The notes beneath the pieces were generated by a model. The model was not told the DNA's origin. It did no database searches and saw only the letters and a program-made list of their open reading frames with translations. From contig NZ_RCWA01000029.1 in NCBI RefSeq assembly GCF_018448905.1, positions 1-58,312 of the forward strand: a stretch of 58,312 nucleotides of DNA, read 5' to 3'. The stretch's first letter is position 1, and the number at the start of each line of letters is the position of its first letter. Source of the DNA: Photorhabdus heterorhabditis. Lineage in GTDB: Bacteria > Pseudomonadota > Gammaproteobacteria > Enterobacterales > Enterobacteriaceae. The translations under genes and the position numbers were made by a program. Shown here piece after piece: positions 1-8,793 of the stretch.

Positions 1-131
1 CATTGAGGGCACTCCACCAAATCACCTTTACCCGCGATAGGAATACCCTTGTGAGTATAGTCATCAATAGCGGTAATCACCTTACCGCCATGATCTGTCG
101 TATCACCCAGCAGAATAACTGCTTTTGCCAT
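1..131 (-). CDS. PAAR-domain spike-tip protein, copy 3 (3' end off the window)
   Basis: This is the N-terminal 43 codons of a PAAR-motif protein, truncated by the left edge. The visible part differs by about one codon from the two complete 88-residue copies at 1986-2252 and 3899-4165. PAAR proteins cap the VgrG trimer of the type VI secretion spike and help carry effectors. The start ATG lies 45 bp after the Imm52-like gene, as in the other two modules. The gene closes the third repeat of the toxin-immunity-PAAR array, and more copies may lie beyond the edge. Confidence 0.8.
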   Translation of the reverse strand, partial: MAKAVILLGDTTDHGGKVITAIDDYTHKGIPIAGKGDLVECPQ

Positions 132-176
132 TAACGTTCTCCTCCGTTTTTCGATTGGTAAATAACATCATCCCTA

Positions 177-899
177 TCACACTTCAGTAATTAATGGTAA
201 TAATCCTAAGTTCACCAACTGAATTTCAACATCATTGGATTTATCAATATCGTCCTGATTTCTTCCATCAAAAATGCCTTTTTTGGTGACAATCAGAGTA
301 CCTACCTGTTCATTATTCTGCTGCACGGGAAGCACATCTTCCGCCATAGGCAGATCGGATTTATCAATAATGCTGGGCTGGTAAAGCATCCAGCCAACAC
401 TGAGACGGTCTGGGAAAACCTGTTTGCCTTTTACGGTATAACCATTATTTTCGACTTGAATATAAGGAAGGTCACGGCTGGTCGCTAAATATTTGACAAA
501 GTCAATTAACCGAGAGACTTCAAGCTGATGACTATCAATCCTTAAATTCATTTCCAACCAAACCCAATTAGGGCGATCAGTTAACATTTTGCTATAACTA
601 ATGCCACTAGATAACTCATCCTTTTCACCATCCCATATACCGTTAATAAGAGCAGGAAAATTTCTCTTATAATCTTTTTCAAAACTTTTTATGGATACCT
701 CAGTTGGTCCCTGCTCATCAAACACAATATGTTTTAGGGCTTCCTTTCGGGAATAGCCAGTTAAGTACCACACTTTTTCCTGGTTAAAAAATACATCTAT
801 TTGCCGTGTGATATAAAACAAGTCCATCAAAGCTGTATAGGCAGTAATAGTTTCTCTCTGCTCATAATATACATTAATTTTTATACGAACTATCGCCAT
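177..899 (-). CDS. Imm52-like immunity protein, copy 3
   Basis: A 240-residue soluble protein with no signal peptide or membrane segment. It matches what I recall of the Imm52 immunity family, which is found beside Tox-REase-5 toxins; this is family recognition from memory, not a search. It is one of three paralogues in tandem modules. The C-terminal third, including the IDKSNDVEIQLVNLGLLPL region, is nearly invariant, while the N-terminal and middle parts vary. The expected role is to bind and neutralise the nuclease of the same module in the cytoplasm. Its partner toxin gene (912-1881) is disrupted, so this copy may be an orphan kept for protection against sister cells. The spacing to the toxin gene (12 bp) matches the other modules. 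Confidence 0.72.
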   Translation of the reverse strand: MAIVRIKINVYYEQRETITAYTALMDLFYITRQIDVFFNQEKVWYLTGYSRKEALKHIVFDEQGPTEVSIKSFEKDYKRNFPALINGIWDGEKDELSSGISYSKMLTDRPNWVWLEMNLRIDSHQLEVSRLIDFVKYLATSRDLPYIQVENNGYTVKGKQVFPDRLSVGWMLYQPSIIDKSDLPMAEDVLPVQQNNEQVGTLIVTKKGIFDGRNQDDIDKSNDVEIQLVNLGLLPLITEV

Positions 900-1057
900 G
901 TTTACCTCGAATTAAACTAAACTGCTGCAAGGGGTATAGTGAACACTGATATTTTTGTATTTACTAAACAGTACCTTAAAATACCCACAACTGATAGGTT
1001 GCAAAAAGTGCCATTCCACATGGGGAGTACTATCTAGTACATCACAAACCTTCTGGT

Positions 1058-1152
1058 GCCTGATAGCCTGATAGCCTGATAGCCTGATAGCCTGATAGCC
1101 TGATAGCCTGATAGCCTGATAGCCTGATAGCCTGATAGCCTGATAGCCTGAT
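1058..1152. repeat. Octanucleotide tandem repeat (TGATAGCC), 11 full copies
   Basis: Eleven perfect TGATAGCC units span 1061-1148, with a partial unit on each side. They lie inside the 3' part of toxin copy 3. The matching sites in the two intact copies have no repeat. On the coding strand three units encode eight residues (QAIRLSGY), repeated. Eight is not a multiple of three, so gain or loss of a unit shifts the frame. Counting shows that 1, 4, 7, 10 or 13 copies restore the conserved C-terminus, and the present 11 do not. This is the form of a slipped-strand contingency locus. Confidence 0.95.
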
Positions 1153-1711
1153 TTTGGGCCGATTTAACACCTTTCCACCAACTTTTTGGTTCATCTTCAC
1201 TCCTAAAAAACTGGTCATACCGCGCCTTAGCTTCCAGAAATAAGCAATACGCGGGTCGCCAGCCATCAAAGGTCACTTTCAGGCACTGAAATTCCTGGAT
1301 CATCTGTATGCTAGGATCATATTTCGTTTGAGCAATAAATCGCTGATAGTTAATCGTGATGGCACTCCAGCGGCTCACCTTGCGATATTTTTCACTCGTC
1401 ACAGGAATAGCCAGGCAAGCCTTGCACTCTTTTGTACTCTCCGTTTTTTCACACTCTTCCGCCTTAGACTGGGCCTTCGCCTGAACCGCACTGGTATCAA
1501 CGGATTCTTCTCCTAAATCATCATCCTCCCAAAAATCCGCATGCGCTTCGGCACTCCAGACAATATTTCTGTCTTCATCCGTGATTTCAGGACTTATCAC
1601 AAAATCCATTTTCTTTCGGTGAATATGTTCATCGTCTTCGAACGGTTTTTCTTTACTTGCTTCCATGATGCCGACAGCAATTAGTACCCCGGCACAAGCA
1701 CTAGCGACATA

Positions 1712-1834
1712 TACCCTTCATCTTTCAAATTGCTGCTTTGTTGGCTGCGGTCACTTACCCCAGTCACAGAGTTATCTATGCTCCTGGGGATGCGTTCACT
1801 TGCCGCCTCGCTGCAAATTGAAATCTATTGGGTA
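1712..1834. repeat. ERIC element, full length (123 bp), inserted in toxin copy 3
   Basis: The element begins TACCC and ends GGGTA as an imperfect inverted repeat. It contains both motifs known from ERIC primers, GCTCCTGGGGAT and a variant of GTGACTGGGG. Compared with the intact toxin copies, it sits after a TA at 1710-1711 and is followed by TG at 1835-1836. This fits a TA target duplication with one later change. The net insertion of 125 bp also equals the length difference from an intact copy once ten extra octamers are subtracted. Confidence 0.92.
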
Positions 1835-1985
1835 TGTTCAGCCGCACCTACTGCGACAGGGGCCAGTAACGGTATTGGCATATTAACGTCTCCTATTTAT
1901 CTTATTTTTTGCAATACAAAGAATATCTTTAAACTGCTATTTCAGCTCCTGACCGGGAATTCAAATGCTCCGAATTAAATTCACA

Positions 1986-2252
1986 TTAACTGGCAAGAGT
2001 GAACTTATGCTGACTGGCAATTAATTTTGCCCCACAGGCTGTTTGCATTCCTTCAAGAGTAATCGATTTTCCTTTATATTTTAAAGAGTCAGCCCCCTGA
2101 ATAATAGGAAAAACCCCTTTGCATTGAGGGCACTCCACCAAATCACCTTTACCCGCGATAGGAATACCCTTGTGAGTATAGTCATCAATAGCGGTAATCA
2201 CCTTACCGCCATGATCTGTCATATCTCCTAATAGAATAACTGCTTTTGACAT
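1986..2252 (-). CDS. PAAR-domain spike-tip protein, copy 2
   Basis: A complete 88-residue protein with the small PAAR fold signature: an N-terminal GDMTDHGG segment, a GIPIAGKGDLVECPQCKG turn with two cysteines, and a C-terminal LEGMQTACGAKLIASQ segment. PAAR proteins form the sharp zinc-bound tip on VgrG and can recruit effectors, so this one probably loads a neighbouring toxin. It is nearly identical to copy 1, differing at a few residues (Ser2, Gly9, Thr66). It lies 45 bp after the Imm52-like gene of its module and is followed by a leftover 3' fragment of the small gene that precedes toxin copy 1. Confidence 0.88.
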   Translation of the reverse strand: MSKAVILLGDMTDHGGKVITAIDDYTHKGIPIAGKGDLVECPQCKGVFPIIQGADSLKYKGKSITLEGMQTACGAKLIASQHKFTLAS

Positions 2253-2297
2253 TAACGTTCTCCACCGTTTTTCAATTGGTAAATAACATCACCTCCA

Positions 2298-3020
2298 TCA
2301 CACTTCGGTAATTAATGGTAATAATCCCAGGTTCACTAACTGAATTTCAACATCATTGGATTTATCAATATCATCCTGACTTTCACCGTCAAAAATGCCT
2401 TTCTTGGTGATAATCAGAGTACCTACCTGTTCATTATTTTGATGGACGGGAAGTACCTCCTCCGCCATAGGCAGATAAGATTTATCAATAATACGGGGCT
2501 GGTAAAGCATCCAGCCAACACTGAGACGGTCAGGGAAAACATTATGTTGAGATAAAGTATAGCCGTTAGTTTCCACTTGAATATAAGGACAATCACAACT
2601 GATAGATAAATATTTAATTAAATCAATCAACTTAGATATATTCAACTGGCTAGAGTCAATGCTTAGATCGAGTGTCAACCAAATCCAATTGGGACGTACA
2701 CTTGACATTCTTTTATAACTAATACCACAGGATAATTCATCCTTCTCCCCATCCCATATGCCAGTAATAAGTGACGGAAAATTTTTCCTATAAATTTTTT
2801 CAAAATCTTTGATAGCAACTTCAGTTGGCCCCTGCTCATCAAAAACAACATTCTTAAGTGCCTGTTTTCTGGAGTAACCGGTTAAGTACCAGATTTTTTT
2901 CTGCCCAAAAAAGATATCAATTTGCCGTGTGATATGAAACAAGTCCATCAACGCAGTGTTGACGACAGCGGTTTCCTGTTGCTCATAATACGCATTGATT
3001 TTTAGACAAATTATTGCCAT
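2298..3020 (-). CDS. Imm52-like immunity protein, copy 2
   Basis: A 240-residue cytoplasmic protein, paralogous to the proteins at 177-899 and 4211-4933 and matching the Imm52 type by memory. The start and the last ~80 residues are shared with the other copies. Residues ~15-150 differ at many positions, including an FGQKKIWYL segment where copy 1 has FNLKKTWYL. That pattern is expected if each immunity protein tracks its own toxin. The gene starts 12 bp after toxin copy 2, so the two are probably co-translated. Confidence 0.74.
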   Translation of the reverse strand: MAIICLKINAYYEQQETAVVNTALMDLFHITRQIDIFFGQKKIWYLTGYSRKQALKNVVFDEQGPTEVAIKDFEKIYRKNFPSLITGIWDGEKDELSCGISYKRMSSVRPNWIWLTLDLSIDSSQLNISKLIDLIKYLSISCDCPYIQVETNGYTLSQHNVFPDRLSVGWMLYQPRIIDKSYLPMAEEVLPVHQNNEQVGTLIITKKGIFDGESQDDIDKSNDVEIQLVNLGLLPLITEV

Positions 3021-3032
3021 GTTGACCTCGGA

Positions 3033-3794
3033 TTAAACTAAACTATTGCACGGAGTATAGTGAACGCTGATATTTTTATGTTTACTAAACATAATCTTAA
3101 AGTATGCACAACTTATGGGTTGTAAAAAGTGCCATTCAACATAGGGAGTACATTCCAGTGCATCACAAACTTTTTGATGCCTTTCTGCTTGTTCTTGGGC
3201 TGAGAAAACGCCTCTCCACCATTTTTTAGGCTCTTTACCCTTAAAAAACTGGTCATACCGCGCTTTGGCCTCCAGAAATAAGCAATACGCGGGCCGCCAG
3301 CCATCAAAGGTCACTTTCAGGCACTGAAATTCCTGGATCATCTGTATAGTCGGATCATATTTCGTTTGGGCAATAAATCGCTGATAGTTAATCGTGATGG
3401 CGCTCCAGCGGCTCACCTTGCGATATTTTTCACTCGTCACCGGAATAGCCAGGCAAGCCTTGCACTCTTTTGTACTCTCCGTTTTTTCACACTCTTCCGC
3501 CTTAGACTGGGCCTTCGCCTGAACCGCACTGGTATCAACGGATTCATCCCCTAAATCATCATCCTCCCAAAAATCCGCATGCGCTTCGGCACTCCAGACA
3601 ATATTTCTGTCTTCATCCGTGATTTCAGGACTTATCACAAAATCCATTTTCTTTCGGTGAATATGTTCATCGTCTTCGACCGGTTTTTCCTTACTTGCTT
3701 CCACTATACCGACAGCAATTAATACCCCGGCACAAGCGCTGGCAACATATTCAGCCGCACCTACTGCGACAGGGGCCAGTAATGGTATTGGCAT
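3033..3794 (-). CDS. Tox-REase-5-like T6SS nuclease toxin, copy 2
   Basis: A 253-residue protein. Residues 1-30 are hydrophobic and small (Ala/Gly-rich). Residues ~31-110 form an acidic linker. Residues ~112-250 match the Tox-REase-5 restriction-endonuclease-fold domain, beginning CKACLAIPV and carrying FDGW and LEAK, the likely D...ExK metal-binding core (about D164, E175, K177). Tox-REase-5 domains are known as polymorphic-toxin nucleases; delivery here by VgrG and PAAR is inferred from context. The first ~185 residues are almost identical to copy 1, whereas the last ~70, after DQFF, differ substantially (KGKEPKKWWRG and QAERHQ). The gene is followed at 12 bp by its Imm52-like partner. Confidence 0.8.
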   Translation of the reverse strand: MPIPLLAPVAVGAAEYVASACAGVLIAVGIVEASKEKPVEDDEHIHRKKMDFVISPEITDEDRNIVWSAEAHADFWEDDDLGDESVDTSAVQAKAQSKAEECEKTESTKECKACLAIPVTSEKYRKVSRWSAITINYQRFIAQTKYDPTIQMIQEFQCLKVTFDGWRPAYCLFLEAKARYDQFFKGKEPKKWWRGVFSAQEQAERHQKVCDALECTPYVEWHFLQPISCAYFKIMFSKHKNISVHYTPCNSLV

Positions 3795-3898
3795 ATTAAC
3801 GTCTCCTGTTTATCTTATTTTTTGCAATACAAAGAATATCTTTAAACTGCTATTTCAGCTCCTGACCGGGAATTCAAATGCTCCGAATTAAATTCACA

Positions 3899-4165
3899 TT
3901 AACTGGCAAGAGTGAACTTATGCTGACTGGCAATTAATTTTGCCCCACAGGCTGTTTGCATTCCTTCAAGCGCAATCGATTTTCCTTTATATTTTAAAGA
4001 GTCAGCCCCCTGAATAATAGGAAATACACCTTTGCATTGAGGGCACTCCACCAAATCACCTTTACCCGCGATAGGAATACCCTTGTGAGTATAGTCATCA
4101 ATAGCGGTAATCACCTTACCGCCATGATCTGTCATATCTTCTAATAGAATAACCGCTTTTGCCAT
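3899..4165 (-). CDS. PAAR-domain spike-tip protein, copy 1
   Basis: An 88-residue PAAR protein of the first module, with the same GDLVECPQCKG and ACGAKLIASQ segments as copy 2. It differs by Glu9 in place of Gly and by Ala in the C-terminal segment. It should sit on the VgrG encoded at 6544-8580. It ends 104 bp before the start of toxin copy 2. That gap holds a decayed copy of the 3' end of the small gene at 5712-6053, which marks the junction of the tandem duplication. Confidence 0.88.
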   Translation of the reverse strand: MAKAVILLEDMTDHGGKVITAIDDYTHKGIPIAGKGDLVECPQCKGVFPIIQGADSLKYKGKSIALEGMQTACGAKLIASQHKFTLAS

Positions 4166-4210
4166 TAACGTTCTCCACCGTTTTTCAATTGGTAAATAAC
4201 ATCACCTCCA

Positions 4211-4933
4211 TCACACTTCGGTAATTAATGGTAATAATCCCAGGTTCACTAACTGAATTTCAACATCATTGGATTTATCAATATCGTCCTGATTTCTTCC
4301 ATCAAAAATGCCTTTTTTGGTGACAATCAGAGTGCCTATTTGTTGATCATGTTGATAAACGTGAAGTACCTCCTCCGCCATAGGCAAATAAGATTTATCA
4401 ATAATGCGCGGCTGGTAAAGCATCCAGCCGATACTGAGGCGGTCAGGGAAAACCTGTCTACCTTTTAAGGTATAGCCGTTGGTTTCCACTTGAATATAAG
4501 GAAAGTCACGGCTAGTCGCTAAATATTTAACTAAGTCAATTAACCTGATGACATCAAGTTGATAGCTGTCAACACTTAGGTTTATTTCCAGCCAAACCCA
4601 GTTAGGGGTAGCAGTTCGCATTTTTTTATACATAATACCATTATCTAATCCATCTTTTTCACCATCCCATATCCCAGTAATAAGCGCCGGAAAATCTTTT
4701 TTATAATCTTTTTCAAAGTCCTTGATAGCAACCGCAGTTGGCCCCTGTTCATCGAATACAATATGTTTTAAAGCCTCCTTTCGGGAGTAACCAGTTAAGT
4801 ACCAAGTTTTTTTCAGGTTAAAAAAGACATCAATTTGACGTGTAATATGAAACAAATCCATTAACGCAGTATTGGCAGTAATAGTTTCCTGCTGTTCATA
4901 ACGTACATTGATTTTTAAATGAATTATTGTCAT
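4211..4933 (-). CDS. Imm52-like immunity protein, copy 1
   Basis: A 240-residue soluble protein of the first module and paralogue of the other two immunity proteins. It resembles the Imm52 family, which pairs with Tox-REase-5 toxins. It diverges most in the N-terminal two thirds and has its own segment near residue 200 (VYQHDQQIGTLIV). It starts 12 bp downstream of toxin copy 1 and precedes the PAAR gene by 45 bp. The likely role is protection of the producer and its siblings from the copy-1 nuclease; cross-protection against the other copies cannot be judged from sequence. Confidence 0.74.
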   Translation of the reverse strand: MTIIHLKINVRYEQQETITANTALMDLFHITRQIDVFFNLKKTWYLTGYSRKEALKHIVFDEQGPTAVAIKDFEKDYKKDFPALITGIWDGEKDGLDNGIMYKKMRTATPNWVWLEINLSVDSYQLDVIRLIDLVKYLATSRDFPYIQVETNGYTLKGRQVFPDRLSIGWMLYQPRIIDKSYLPMAEEVLHVYQHDQQIGTLIVTKKGIFDGRNQDDIDKSNDVEIQLVNLGLLPLITEV

Positions 4934-4945
4934 GTTGACCTCAAA

Positions 4946-5710
4946 TTAAAATAAACTATCGCAGGGGGTATAGTGAACACTGATATTTTTATGATCACTA
5001 AATTGCACTTTAAAATATTCATAACTGATCGGCTGTAAAAAGTGCCATTCCACATGAGGGGTACCATCCAGAACATTACAGACTGTTTGATGCCTTTGGG
5101 CTTGCCTTATAGCTGAAAAAACACCTTTCCACCATTTCTTAGGTTCCTCATTACTCCTAAAAAACTGGTCATACCGCGCCTTAGCTTCCAGAAATAAGCA
5201 ATACGCGGGTCGCCAGCCATCAAAGGTTACTTTCAGGCACTGAAATTCCTGGATCATCTGTATAGTCGGATCATATTTCGTTTGGGCAATAAATCGCTGA
5301 TAGTTAATTGTGATGGCGCTCCAGCGGCTCACCTTGCGATATTTTTCACTCGTCACCGGAATAGCCAGGCAAGCCTTGCACTCCTTTTTATTCTCCGTTT
5401 TTTCACACTCTTCCGCCTTAGACTGGGCCTTCGCCTGAACCGCACTGGTATCAACGGACTCATCCCCTAAATCATCATCCTCCCAAAAATCCGCATGCGC
5501 TTCGGCACTCCAGACAATATTTCTGTCTTCATCCGTGATTTCAGGACTTATCACAAAATCCATTTTCTTTCGGTGAATATGTTCATCGTCTTCAACCGGT
5601 TTTTCTTTACTTGCTTCCATGATGCCGACAGCAATTAGTACTCCAGCACAGGCGCTGGCAACATATTCAGCCGCACCTACTGCGACAGGGGCCAGTAACG
5701 GTATTGGCAT
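4946..5710 (-). CDS. Tox-REase-5-like T6SS nuclease toxin, copy 1
   Basis: A 254-residue protein with a hydrophobic N-terminus (residues 1-30), an acidic lysine-containing linker and a C-terminal Tox-REase-5-like domain from about residue 111. The likely catalytic residues are D164 in FDGW and E175/K177 in LEAK, and the domain ends with a WHFLQPIS...VHYTP segment. It starts one base after the stop of the small gene at 5712-6053, so it is coupled to the vgrG transcript. Its VgrG-adaptor context points to loading on VgrG or on the module's PAAR protein. The C-terminal ~70 residues are the variable part among copies. The nuclease assignment rests on family resemblance. Confidence 0.82.
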   Translation of the reverse strand: MPIPLLAPVAVGAAEYVASACAGVLIAVGIMEASKEKPVEDDEHIHRKKMDFVISPEITDEDRNIVWSAEAHADFWEDDDLGDESVDTSAVQAKAQSKAEECEKTENKKECKACLAIPVTSEKYRKVSRWSAITINYQRFIAQTKYDPTIQMIQEFQCLKVTFDGWRPAYCLFLEAKARYDQFFRSNEEPKKWWKGVFSAIRQAQRHQTVCNVLDGTPHVEWHFLQPISYEYFKVQFSDHKNISVHYTPCDSLF

Positions 5711-5711
5711 A

Positions 5712-6053
5712 TTAACGTCTCCTGTTTATCTTATTTTTTGCAATACAAAGAATATCTTTAAACTGTTGCTCAGATTTCTGATCAGGGGATTCCAGAGCAG
5801 ATTTGATTGGCGAGGCATACTGAAAATCAGGATTAAACGCGACCAGAGATAAATAGGATTGAATCAAGTATTTATCCTGAAAGTTTAATGTCAGTAAATA
5901 GTCATAAGCAGCCATTAGCCGTTTGTTCAGCGAAGACGGAGAAGGTATTAATTCAGCGTGTTTAGCTAGAAGTTCGGCCTGTATACGATCAATAACGGTC
6001 TGCTTTTCCAGTTTGGTAATGATATCAAGTTGTGTTTGGGTCAATTCAATCAT
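5712..6053 (-). CDS. Small hypothetical protein of the VgrG effector operon
   Basis: A 113-residue protein that I do not recognise. It is predicted soluble and mostly helical, with no signal peptide. I chose the ATG at 6053 because it overlaps the TGA of the DUF4123 gene (ATGA), the same coupling used between vgrG and DUF4123; a longer form from 6104 would overlap that gene by 55 bp. It ends one base before toxin copy 1. Its last ~17 codons recur as a decayed remnant upstream of toxin copies 2 and 3, so the tandem duplication began inside this gene. It could be a chaperone or co-adaptor for effector loading, but that is context only. Confidence 0.75.
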   Translation of the reverse strand: MIELTQTQLDIITKLEKQTVIDRIQAELLAKHAELIPSPSSLNKRLMAAYDYLLTLNFQDKYLIQSYLSLVAFNPDFQYASPIKSALESPDQKSEQQFKDILCIAKNKINRRR

Positions 6054-6547
6054 AATGGATCTCCTGACACCGAATAATAAGTAGAATTGTGTTGATAAAC
6101 CCATGCGTTAATACCCTGCATAAATGCAGACAGTTGCTCATGGCTAAAAATGTCACGAATGAGATGCAAAATACGAGGATCATAAAAACGTAGCAGTGCC
6201 GTCTGTTTTGCCGACAGCTGAATATTTAAATATGGCACAAGATGGCGGGTCAATTTATCCAATGACAGAGAAGTTAACAGCCATGATACTGCCGGAGACG
6301 TTTCTTCAAGTGTTGATAATTTATCTTGCCACTGATGAGCGTATTCCATATCAAACAGCCACGGGCCTGCAAACGCAATTTTTGAATCTGGATAGTGCCG
6401 GAACAGTGGGTTGTTGATACCCGCGATATAGTTAATTTCCTCACCAAAACAGCGCTCATATTGCAAACCATTCACCAGCGCATAAAGCCGAACGCCGGGA
6501 TGTTCTTTCTGATAATTAGCCAGTTTTTCGCTTAATTTAGGTGTCAT
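6050..6547 (-). CDS. DUF4123-type T6SS effector adaptor
   Basis: A 165-residue protein resembling DUF4123 (Tap/TEC) adaptor proteins. These bind an effector and the VgrG tip during type VI loading and are usually encoded directly after vgrG. Visible family traits are the early LYALVNGLQY segment, the central AGPWLFD segment and the C-terminal RFYDPRILHLI segment. Length is in the usual range for the short form. The start ATG overlaps the vgrG stop as ATGA, so translation is coupled. It probably serves the toxin at 4946-5710. Confidence 0.85.
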   Translation of the reverse strand: MTPKLSEKLANYQKEHPGVRLYALVNGLQYERCFGEEINYIAGINNPLFRHYPDSKIAFAGPWLFDMEYAHQWQDKLSTLEETSPAVSWLLTSLSLDKLTRHLVPYLNIQLSAKQTALLRFYDPRILHLIRDIFSHEQLSAFMQGINAWVYQHNSTYYSVSGDPL

Positions 6548-8580
6548 GACTGCCCCCTGATAATGGTTATTGCTTCTTCACGTTCTGCTTTCATCAGACA
6601 ACTGAGACAAATTTCTTTGAGTGGTTCTTTAACAACGGCAGTTGGCATTTCAGCACTGACCTGTTTCAGTCTATCCAGCATATCCGGCAGTTTCCCTCCC
6701 CAACCCGAACCTGTACCCGGTGTTCCACTGGCAAAACTAATCCCGGCACTACTGCTGATACCACTGGCATCAATTTTAATAAAATGCCCTGCTGCCTGTA
6801 AGGTAAGCTCACTTCCGACATCAATGACTATCTTTGCCCCAGAACTGAGATGAATTTCATTTCCACTCTGTACCAACAACGCATCGTCAGCTTTGATATG
6901 GAGTTTTTGCCCGGTTGAAATGGAAATATCCTGTTTCGCCAGAACACGATATTCATTATCAACACGTAAGTGGGCGTCGTGTTTAACATGATGAGTCCGG
7001 TTATGTTCAATATTGACCACTTCATCGTTTAAAATCTCAGTTTTCATGTCCTTCTGAGCATGAATATAGATTTCCTCACCGCCTTTATCATCGTCAAAAC
7101 GCAGTTCATTAAATCCTTCCCCTTTATGGGTTTTTGATCGGATTGACATCTGCGTTTTTGCCATCGGTAAACGGTTCGGTGGGATATTACAAGCATGGTA
7201 GGTTCGTCCAGTAATAATCGGCTGGTCAGGATCGCCATGTAGAAAATCGACCAGTACTTCCTGACCAACACGCGGGATGGTAATCATTCCCCAACCATGT
7301 CCAGCCCAAGCCTGACTAACTCTTATCCAGCAAGAACTTTGATCATTAAGCTTGCCATACCGATCCCAGGCAAATTGCACCCTCACCCGCCCATATTCAT
7401 CACAAAATATCTCTTCTCCCTCTGGACCAACCACCGTGGCAATTTGCAGGCCATCAATACGTGGCTTGGGGTAAGGTAAGGGACGCCATACCCGGTTAGA
7501 GCTACCAAAGGTAAAATTATTCGTCAAAATCGTCCCTTTGCTACCAAAACGTGATTCATCCGCTTGAGGCTGCTGGCCATAGTGAGTAATTTGGATTATT
7601 TGCCACGAGGCATTAAATTTTTCTTTCGGATGATCGGTAAGCGTAAACCACATGCCCGGTAAAAGAGCAAAACTGTCACTTTGTCCACTACCGAGCAAAG
7701 CATCATTACGCAACGCCTCCAACCGATACTGGCTTATCCGCTGCCCATTTTCATCTTTATAACGTCCGGGAAAGTCATAGTGATAGTAACTACGTAAATC
7801 CGAACGTTGATTACTGATGTACCTTTGGGTTTCATGGAATTGAAAATCAGCAGGCCATCGGGGATTTTTAAATGTGTAGTCTTTCAACGAAACTTCAGCA
7901 ATACCTACCTTTTCTCCCCAACGAAATTGGCTGATACAACACTGACTGCCTGTGGCATCGAATTCAGGGTTGTAGGGCAGTGAAAGAATGCCATTCTGGG
8001 TATAAGAGTCGACAAAAATAACTGTCGGCTCGTCCTTACTTTGATCAAAGTAATAGTAATAAAAGATCCCTTCATCAGCTGACAGACGCTGTAAAAAAGC
8101 CAAATCACTCTCATCGTATTGAACGCAGAACTCCCGTTCTGGATGCTCATAACGCAGTAGACAAGAGAAATGGCGAACGCCATTTTCTTTCAACAGTCTT
8201 TCAATAATATCAGTGACCGATTGATTCTGAAAAATACGGGAATTAACTCGTAATCCGGCACGCCACAAGGAAGGATGAAGTGTCAAACAGTAGCGGCTAC
8301 GATAACGGCCAGTGGTTTCCTGCACAAAATGCGTCACAATCCCAGTGATATAACGCTCAGGCTGCCCATTGCGATAAACGGTCAATGTGGCGTATTTATC
8401 CAGAACATCCGCAAAATCAATGTCTGGATTGGCACAGGTGAGTGTGGCTTGCAAACTGAATAATGTTGACAGCGCTTCATTCAGTGTAAATTCGACCACA
8501 GCAAAAGTTTTCACAGGGAGATTACCGACCGCGAGAGTAAAAACCAATCCGGTTCGTTCCACATCAAAATCATTAGCCAT
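6544..8580 (-). CDS. vgrG: Type VI secretion spike protein VgrG
   Basis: A protein of about 678 residues with the VgrG/Rhs-spike architecture. The N-terminal gp27-like region runs to about residue 380. A gp5-like OB-fold follows, with the conserved EYGRVRVQFAWDR and WIRVSQAWAG...IPRVGQEVLVDFLHGDPDQP segments, then a beta-helical needle of short repeats to about residue 600. The last ~70 residues (with CLSCLMKAER) are not a recognised effector domain, so this is a structural spike carrying a separate cargo. Start: ATG at 8580; a TTG at 8586 is closer to an AGGT ribosome site and could be used instead. No tube, sheath or baseplate genes lie in the window, so this is an auxiliary vgrG island that depends on a T6SS elsewhere. 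Confidence 0.95.
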   Translation of the reverse strand: MANDFDVERTGLVFTLAVGNLPVKTFAVVEFTLNEALSTLFSLQATLTCANPDIDFADVLDKYATLTVYRNGQPERYITGIVTHFVQETTGRYRSRYCLTLHPSLWRAGLRVNSRIFQNQSVTDIIERLLKENGVRHFSCLLRYEHPEREFCVQYDESDLAFLQRLSADEGIFYYYYFDQSKDEPTVIFVDSYTQNGILSLPYNPEFDATGSQCCISQFRWGEKVGIAEVSLKDYTFKNPRWPADFQFHETQRYISNQRSDLRSYYHYDFPGRYKDENGQRISQYRLEALRNDALLGSGQSDSFALLPGMWFTLTDHPKEKFNASWQIIQITHYGQQPQADESRFGSKGTILTNNFTFGSSNRVWRPLPYPKPRIDGLQIATVVGPEGEEIFCDEYGRVRVQFAWDRYGKLNDQSSCWIRVSQAWAGHGWGMITIPRVGQEVLVDFLHGDPDQPIITGRTYHACNIPPNRLPMAKTQMSIRSKTHKGEGFNELRFDDDKGGEEIYIHAQKDMKTEILNDEVVNIEHNRTHHVKHDAHLRVDNEYRVLAKQDISISTGQKLHIKADDALLVQSGNEIHLSSGAKIVIDVGSELTLQAAGHFIKIDASGISSSAGISFASGTPGTGSGWGGKLPDMLDRLKQVSAEMPTAVVKEPLKEICLSCLMKAEREEAITIIRGQS

Positions 8581-8793
8581 AAGCAATTGTTACCTATAAT
8601 TAAGTTATCAACTCGCAATACACCCCAGACGAAATGATTACAAAAAAAGCAATCATACTGTTTTTTAATCAATCAAACAATTTAATCATAAGAAAATATG
8701 ATGAGATGCAACATGGGCACCAAAGTGGAATTTTGCAACTTTCAGACGGGCTTTGCTTTTAGCTATGTAATAGTTGACCATCACCGTACTTAA

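What the first reader, a model, noticed from the sequence alone, without database searches (positions are those of the whole stretch)
1058..1152. Octanucleotide repeat that could switch a T6SS toxin on and off by frame
Eleven TGATAGCC units, absent from the two sister copies, lie inside the toxin reading frame just after the catalytic core. Ten or thirteen units would restore the conserved C-terminus; eleven gives an early stop. A single unit, as in the ancestral sequence, is also in frame. This is a contingency-locus design in an antibacterial effector gene, which would be unusual. In this copy the N-terminus is also lost.
Basis: seen in the sequence. Interest (0 to 1): 0.72.

Follow-up and report, generated by a model that had tools for sequence, protein, structure and literature searches.

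The report
Slippage repeat in a broken toxin copy
One of three neighbouring copies of a bacterial toxin gene carries a stutter of about twelve identical 8-letter DNA units that throws its reading frame off, but the same copy is also broken near its start by what looks like a mobile element, so the stutter is more likely decay than an on/off switch.

Summary
The array is real: 95 bases, 11.9 perfect copies of one octamer at 1058-1152, the only tandem array reported in the 58 kb window. It lies in copy 1 of three PAAR/Tox-REase-5/putative-immunity cassettes behind vgrG and a DUF4123 gene, in a Photorhabdus genome. It falls in a predicted helix inside the Tox-REase-5 domain. The present frame stops at 1034 and loses the C-terminal part, which is still open in another frame.

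The switch reading is weak. A net 125-base ERIC-like element also interrupts the 5' coding end and brings stops, so reading from the start codon shared with the sisters ends after 18 residues whatever the array length. In 37 of 37 distinct close homologous segments read, the length across the site is the same; the array adds about 30 residues there. The array occurs in 1 of 13 congeneric genomes, this one; one genome per species is held, so polymorphism could not be tested.

Best reading: octamer slippage in a recently broken paralogue whose neighbouring putative immunity gene stays open. By-product: other octamer arrays in this genome, two with P. australis counterparts of other unit number.

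The parts
1058..1152 (.). perfect tandem array, 11.9 copies of an 8-base unit, inside the copy-1 toxin frame (minus strand)
   Evidence: two adjacent units nowhere else in the genome
1034..1666 (-). open frame of toxin copy 1 as it stands (210 aa): from an internal ATG through the array to an early stop; Tox-REase-5 match ends at profile position 74 of 95
918..1073 (-). C-terminal coding piece of copy 1, open without stops but in another frame than the piece upstream of the array
   Evidence: dN well below dS
1710..1835 (.). ERIC-like dispersed element (net 125 bases against the sister copies, counted by eye) interrupting the 5' end of toxin copy 1, with stops
   Evidence: hairpin z -2.7
177..899 (-). 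putative immunity gene of cassette 1 (by position), open frame of 240 aa, no Pfam match
1986..2252 (-). PAAR protein gene
   Evidence: PF05488
2298..3020 (-). putative immunity gene of cassette 2 (by position)
3033..3794 (-). toxin copy 2, whole frame, Tox-REase-5, no array
   Evidence: PF15648
3899..4165 (-). PAAR protein gene
   Evidence: PF05488
4211..4933 (-). putative immunity gene of cassette 3 (by position)
4946..5710 (-). toxin copy 3, whole frame, Tox-REase-5, no array
   Evidence: PF15648; model and relatives TseT and PA3907
6050..6547 (-). DUF4123 protein (T6SS effector chaperone type, from general knowledge)
   Evidence: PF13503; Tla1 match far below its cut-off
6544..8586 (-). VgrG/TssI
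   Evidence: TIGR03361; Pfam

Best explanation
Toxin copy 1 is a recently broken paralogue in a tandem T6SS effector-immunity array. An ERIC-like element landed in its 5' coding end, and an octamer array grew by replication slippage from a short imperfect direct repeat at this site, throwing the frame off and cutting the Tox-REase-5 domain. The neighbouring putative immunity gene stays open. Shown: array, truncation, ERIC-like insertion, open partner frame, constant length at the site in the close relatives read. Inferred: slippage as the cause, the order of the two lesions, absence of selection for switching, and the immunity role.
For: Two independent lesions in one copy. From the start codon shared with the sisters the frame ends after 18 residues inside the ERIC-like element, independently of the array. 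The distance across the site is the same in 37 of 37 distinct segments read, from 43 of 48 sources given. The site falls in helix 196-213 of the copy-3 model, followed by strands 219-224 and 243-247 (ten-residue pLDDT means 80-92 there), and the family's conserved W lies beyond it (W222; conserved pattern 'Y, FDG, EAK, Y, Q, W' in PMC3482391, passages seen). The nearest relatives carry an imperfect seed at the site. Octamers are the commonest class of perfect arrays with units of 4-14 bases (at least 3 copies and 18 bases) in the sampled 1.64 Mb of own genome: 6 of 13, and 4 of 5 with 5 or more copies, so the mutational process needs no special purpose here. Other fragments of the family lie on own contig C12, one with a stop. 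The internal ATG at 1666 has no evident ribosome-binding site by eye.
Against: Both coding pieces of copy 1 still show dN well below dS (ratio about 0.14 for the upstream piece against sister 2, about 0.09 for the downstream piece against L013), so decay is recent at most, and the array could have been a working switch before the ERIC-like insertion. The array is stop-free on the toxin strand in all frames, as a coding contingency repeat would be. Octamer arrays at orthologous places differ in number between this genome and P. australis, so such arrays do change. A product from an internal start is not excluded. The P. australis sample (400 kb) held no octamer array and the G007 sample (400 kb) one.
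Confidence: 0.75

Rival explanations
1. A working contingency locus: slippage in the octamer array toggles toxin copy 1 between truncated and C-terminally complete forms.
For: Perfect 11.9-copy array, stop-free on the toxin strand in all frames; open, conserved C-terminal piece; octamer arrays at orthologous places differ in number between this genome and P. australis.
Against: The ERIC-like insertion breaks the full-length frame independently; any array of this size also inserts about 30 residues where close relatives have constant length; no array in the other 12 congeneric genomes; no second allele could be sought.
Confidence: 0.07
2. A former contingency locus: the array switched the toxin in an ancestor, and the ERIC-like insertion later made the switch obsolete.
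For: Coding pieces on both sides still show low dN/dS; the order of the lesions is unknown.
Against: No array at this site in 37 of 37 distinct segments from this and other Photorhabdus genomes; the inserted residues would sit in a predicted helix.
Confidence: 0.12
3. Assembly artefact: the number of units, or the join at the contig edge, is wrong.
For: Draft assembly of 226 contigs; the window starts at a contig end inside a repeated PAAR gene, and matches to this toxin family also reach ends of C11 and C93.
Against: Two adjacent units occur nowhere else in the genome, both 20-base flanks of the array are unique in the window, and 95 bases fits in one ordinary read (general knowledge; the reads were not seen). 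An error in unit number is possible, invention of the array is not likely.
Confidence: 0.06

Closest known systems
Pseudomonas aeruginosa TseT (Tox-REase-5, crystallised with TsiT; PDB 7dym) and PA3907 (PDB 9oz0)
   Same: Same domain family, T6SS link, partner gene; for 7dym profile hit E 3.2e-8 and fold hit E 4.6e-7, for 9oz0 1.4e-7 and 3.6e-8
   Different: 22-25% identity in the fold alignments; the putative immunity proteins here match no Pfam family; copy 1 is broken
Simple-sequence-repeat phase variation, e.g. the octanucleotide arrays before hmw1A/hmw2A of Haemophilus influenzae biogroup aegyptius (PMC3309571, one passage seen)
   Same: Octamer array of 12-15 units at a gene
   Different: There in a putative promoter, with unit numbers that differ between two strains; here inside a coding frame of a gene broken a second time, with no known variation
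ERIC elements (PMC10969869, passages seen: 711 copies reported in P. luminescens, intragenic cases reported)
   Same: Hairpin-forming stretch of about 126 bases with many copies in this genome
   Different: The ERIC name is recalled; no ERIC consensus was aligned here

Membership tests
Tox-REase-5 (PF15648) | profile match over the whole domain above the curated cut-off | tested here: met
   copies 2 and 3 at 89.5 and 90.8 bits, profile positions 1-95 of 95 (cut-off 25); copy 1 68.9 bits but only positions 1-74, so met in full only by the sisters
Tox-REase-5 (PF15648) | conserved FDG, EAK and downstream Q and W | tested here: met
   invariant F163-D164-G165, E175-A176-K177, Q203, W222 in the 26-sequence alignment; in copy 1 the W lies beyond the array in another frame
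T6SS effector-immunity cassette | linkage to VgrG, PAAR, DUF4123 and a partner gene | tested here: met
   partner genes by position only, no family match
T6SS effector-immunity cassette | toxicity neutralised by the partner | not testable with these tools
   needs bench work
SSR contingency locus | long, perfect, short-unit array | tested here: met
SSR contingency locus | unit number varies between isolates or cells | not testable with these tools
   one genome per species held; among genomes searched the array is found only here
SSR contingency locus | one state gives an intact full-length product | tested here: not met
   the ERIC-like insertion stops the full-length frame independently of the array; an internal-start product was not tested
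ERIC element | dispersed imperfect palindrome of about 127 bases (size recalled) | tested here: inconclusive
   dispersed: 49 matches listed, 40 of 500 first-look candidates scored; hairpin, 3 of 200 shuffles fold as well; inverted-repeat search with 14-base minimum found none; no ERIC consensus aligned

The most novel reading that the evidence does not exclude
A coding octamer array in one member of a tandem T6SS nuclease-effector family acts, or acted until an ERIC-like insertion, as a contingency switch of that effector.
Probability: 0.19. Interest if true: 0.7.

Novelty: new member of a known kind. Interest (0 to 1): 0.3.

Why it matters
If the array varied in living populations it would be a contingency locus inside an antibacterial T6SS effector. 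The searches for phase variation with T6SS listed no paper whose title or shown start of abstract describes one; those papers were not opened. As it stands it shows one copy in an effector-immunity array broken twice while the neighbouring putative immunity gene stays open, and it points to a set of octamer arrays in this genome, two with counterparts of other length in P. australis, which are better candidates for variable loci.

Tried and rejected
Searches for a second allele: genus (13 genomes), family (295 genomes), plasmids (no match), genome contigs (19 loci; none holds two adjacent units), viral contigs (1 unrelated contig). One genome per species is held, so within-species variation stays untested. 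Rfam at the gathering threshold: no match in 1-6200. Pfam at E up to 5 for four proteins gave no family (one chance-level hit, E 0.22). The inverted-repeat search found nothing at its settings, although the ERIC-like stretch folds. DNA folding of the array: plus strand unstructured, minus strand weakly structured (z -1.5), so no structural role is argued.

Results against the reading: low dN/dS in both copy-1 pieces. A rough three-way split of the counts (copies 1, 2, 3), done by hand and on slightly different residue ranges, puts about 12 amino-acid and 11 silent changes on the copy-1 branch, against 7 and 22 between copies 2 and 3; this hints at relaxed constraint but is weak, as the copies may recombine. 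The 400 kb P. australis sample held 0 octamer arrays of 4 arrays, the 400 kb G007 sample 1 of 6, so octamer preference is not shown for the genus.

Limits of the counts: (recounted) read only close copies with one open frame over the site and at most 90 residues between two motifs, so broken, longer or more distant copies are missed; it left out 12 of the 59 loci then held as repeats of the window region, and 43 of the remaining 48 sources (47 loci and the window) gave a segment. One search scored 40 of 500 candidates. Array counts cover 1,641,816 of 5,046,526 own bases, chosen by contig number, not at random, with a minimum of 3 copies and 18 bases, which is stricter for units of 4 and 5; the Markov control was one replicate.

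Full report
Observation. Window bases 1058-1152 are 11.875 perfect copies of an 8-base unit, the only tandem array reported in 58,312 bases. Two adjacent units are found nowhere else in the own genome of 5.05 Mb and in 1 of 13 congeneric genomes, the own one; three adjacent units in 1 of 295 genomes of the family, again the own one. The 19 relatives found by protein are Photorhabdus loci except one from Buttiauxella, and G000 shares its genus with the handles that coincide with those records, so the window comes from a Photorhabdus. It is the start of contig C29 of a 226-contig draft. Species names for handles are inferred from coinciding contig coordinates: G003 = P. australis, G005 = P. bodei, G009 = P. 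namnaonensis, G010 = P. noenieputensis.

Setting. On the minus strand run vgrG (6544-8586), a DUF4123 gene (6050-6547), an unnamed 130-aa frame, then three cassettes of toxin, partner gene and PAAR gene (the third PAAR gene, seen by its likeness to the others, runs off the contig). Toxin copies 2 and 3 match Tox-REase-5 over the whole profile; copy 1 only to position 74 of 95. An AlphaFold model of copy 3 from 26 natural sequences (A1) has mean pLDDT 59.4 and pTM 0.57; residues 1-116 are mostly under 50, while ten-residue means from 121 to 250 are 77-92. Its only fold hits with E at most 0.001 are P. aeruginosa PA3907 and TseT, and the profile finds the same two chains. Antibacterial action is inferred from these relatives and the cassette layout; it was not tested.

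Anatomy of copy 1. There are two lesions. First, against the sister copies, a net 125 bases near 1710-1835 interrupt the 5' coding end; the stretch has many copies in the genome at 93-97% identity and others weaker (49 matches listed, the stretch itself included, 40 of 500 candidates scored) and folds as a hairpin. It is called ERIC-like from recall; ERIC is reported at 711 copies in P. luminescens, with intragenic cases (PMC10969869, passages). Reading from the start codon shared with the sisters gives 18 residues and a stop inside the element, and the main toxin frame also meets stops there. Second, the octamer array: the frame that starts at the internal ATG (1666) runs through it and stops at 1034, while the C-terminal piece (918-1073) is open in another frame.

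What the array does to the protein. The site lies within helix 196-213 of the model, before two strands and a helix. In 37 of 37 distinct segments read from fetched loci and the two sisters, the stretch from the conserved WW to the end of the LQP motif is 35 residues long; the one-residue difference among them lies before the WW. In the alignment of 26, two more distant sequences (L019, L029) have extra residues just before G196, and L058 lacks one after the site. Invariant W222 and several nearly invariant residues lie beyond the array. The present product therefore lacks part of the domain, and any array of this size adds about 30 residues within a predicted helix. Which array lengths give which frame was not worked out here.

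Selection. Compared piece by piece with natural relatives, both parts of copy 1 have dN far below dS: upstream piece against sister 2, dN 0.033 and dS 0.229; downstream piece against P. bodei L013, dN 0.051 and dS 0.58. The lesions are therefore recent, or the gene was under selection until recently; this does not separate decay from a former switch.

Is slippage ordinary here? In 1,641,816 bases of own sequence (81 stretches, window included) perfect arrays with units of 4-14 bases, 3 or more copies and 18 or more bases number 13, of which 6 are octamers; of 5 arrays with 5 or more copies, 4 are octamers. One first-order Markov replicate gave a single array, of a 6-mer. Two octamer arrays have counterparts at orthologous places in P. 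australis (flanks 87-94% identical): ATTTTCTT 8.0 units here, 9.8 there beside 15.9 units of a variant; AATTAAAG 11.0 here, 4.9 there but cut by a contig end. Samples of 400 kb from P. australis and G007 held 0 of 4 and 1 of 6 octamer arrays, so the preference is not shown for the genus.

Verdict. The switch is possible only for an internal-start product or for an ancestor without the ERIC-like insertion, and no second allele could be sought. Decay of one paralogue by insertion and slippage, with the neighbouring putative immunity gene still open, explains all that was seen.

Literature. Searches for phase variation or contingency loci together with T6SS listed 1, 5 and 1 papers, for octanucleotide repeats 1 and 0, and for Photorhabdus with phase variation and tandem repeats 3. 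Of these only passages of PMC3309571 (a Haemophilus octamer array in a putative promoter) and PMC4666352 (where Photorhabdus appears only in a reference) were seen. The search for tandem duplication with orphan immunity found 0. Passages of PMC3482391 gave the Tox-REase-5 motif list. The library lacks most subscription journals.

Noticed in passing
own contig C11:25878-25941 (L168:5878-5941); P. australis L195:5496-5693: ATTTTCTT array, 8.0 units, about 500 bases before a 1676-aa bacterial alpha-2-macroglobulin gene; the orthologous place in P. australis has 9.8 units plus 15.9 of a variant unit
   Followed up: partly
own contig C6:5434-5521 (L077); P. australis L197:1-39: AATTAAAG array, 11 units, between a response-regulator gene and a TelA gene; 4.9 units at the orthologous place in P. 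australis, cut by a contig end
   Followed up: partly
own contig C23:43206-43255 (L088:3206-3255): TTTTATAA array ending 20 bases before the start of a PAS/LuxR-type regulator frame that has a similar neighbour upstream
   Followed up: partly
own contig C20:18234-18280 (L093): AAAATTAT array upstream of a glycosyltransferase frame
   Followed up: no
own contig C4:30533-30616 (L154:10533-10616): AAGATA array of 14 units outside open frames of 60 aa or more
   Followed up: no
L194:3643-3706: An unrelated GC-rich viral contig carries at least eight units of the same octamer inside a 349-aa open frame with no PHROGs match
   Followed up: partly
own contig C12:82219-84257: Further pieces of the same toxin family, one with a stop
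   Followed up: no
window 1-131; own contigs C11 and C93: Matches to this effector family reach contig ends, so the number and order of cassettes in the assembly is uncertain
   Followed up: no
L124:7003-7558 (G007): 46 copies of a 9-base unit followed by 12 copies of a 12-base unit in another Photorhabdus genome
   Followed up: no
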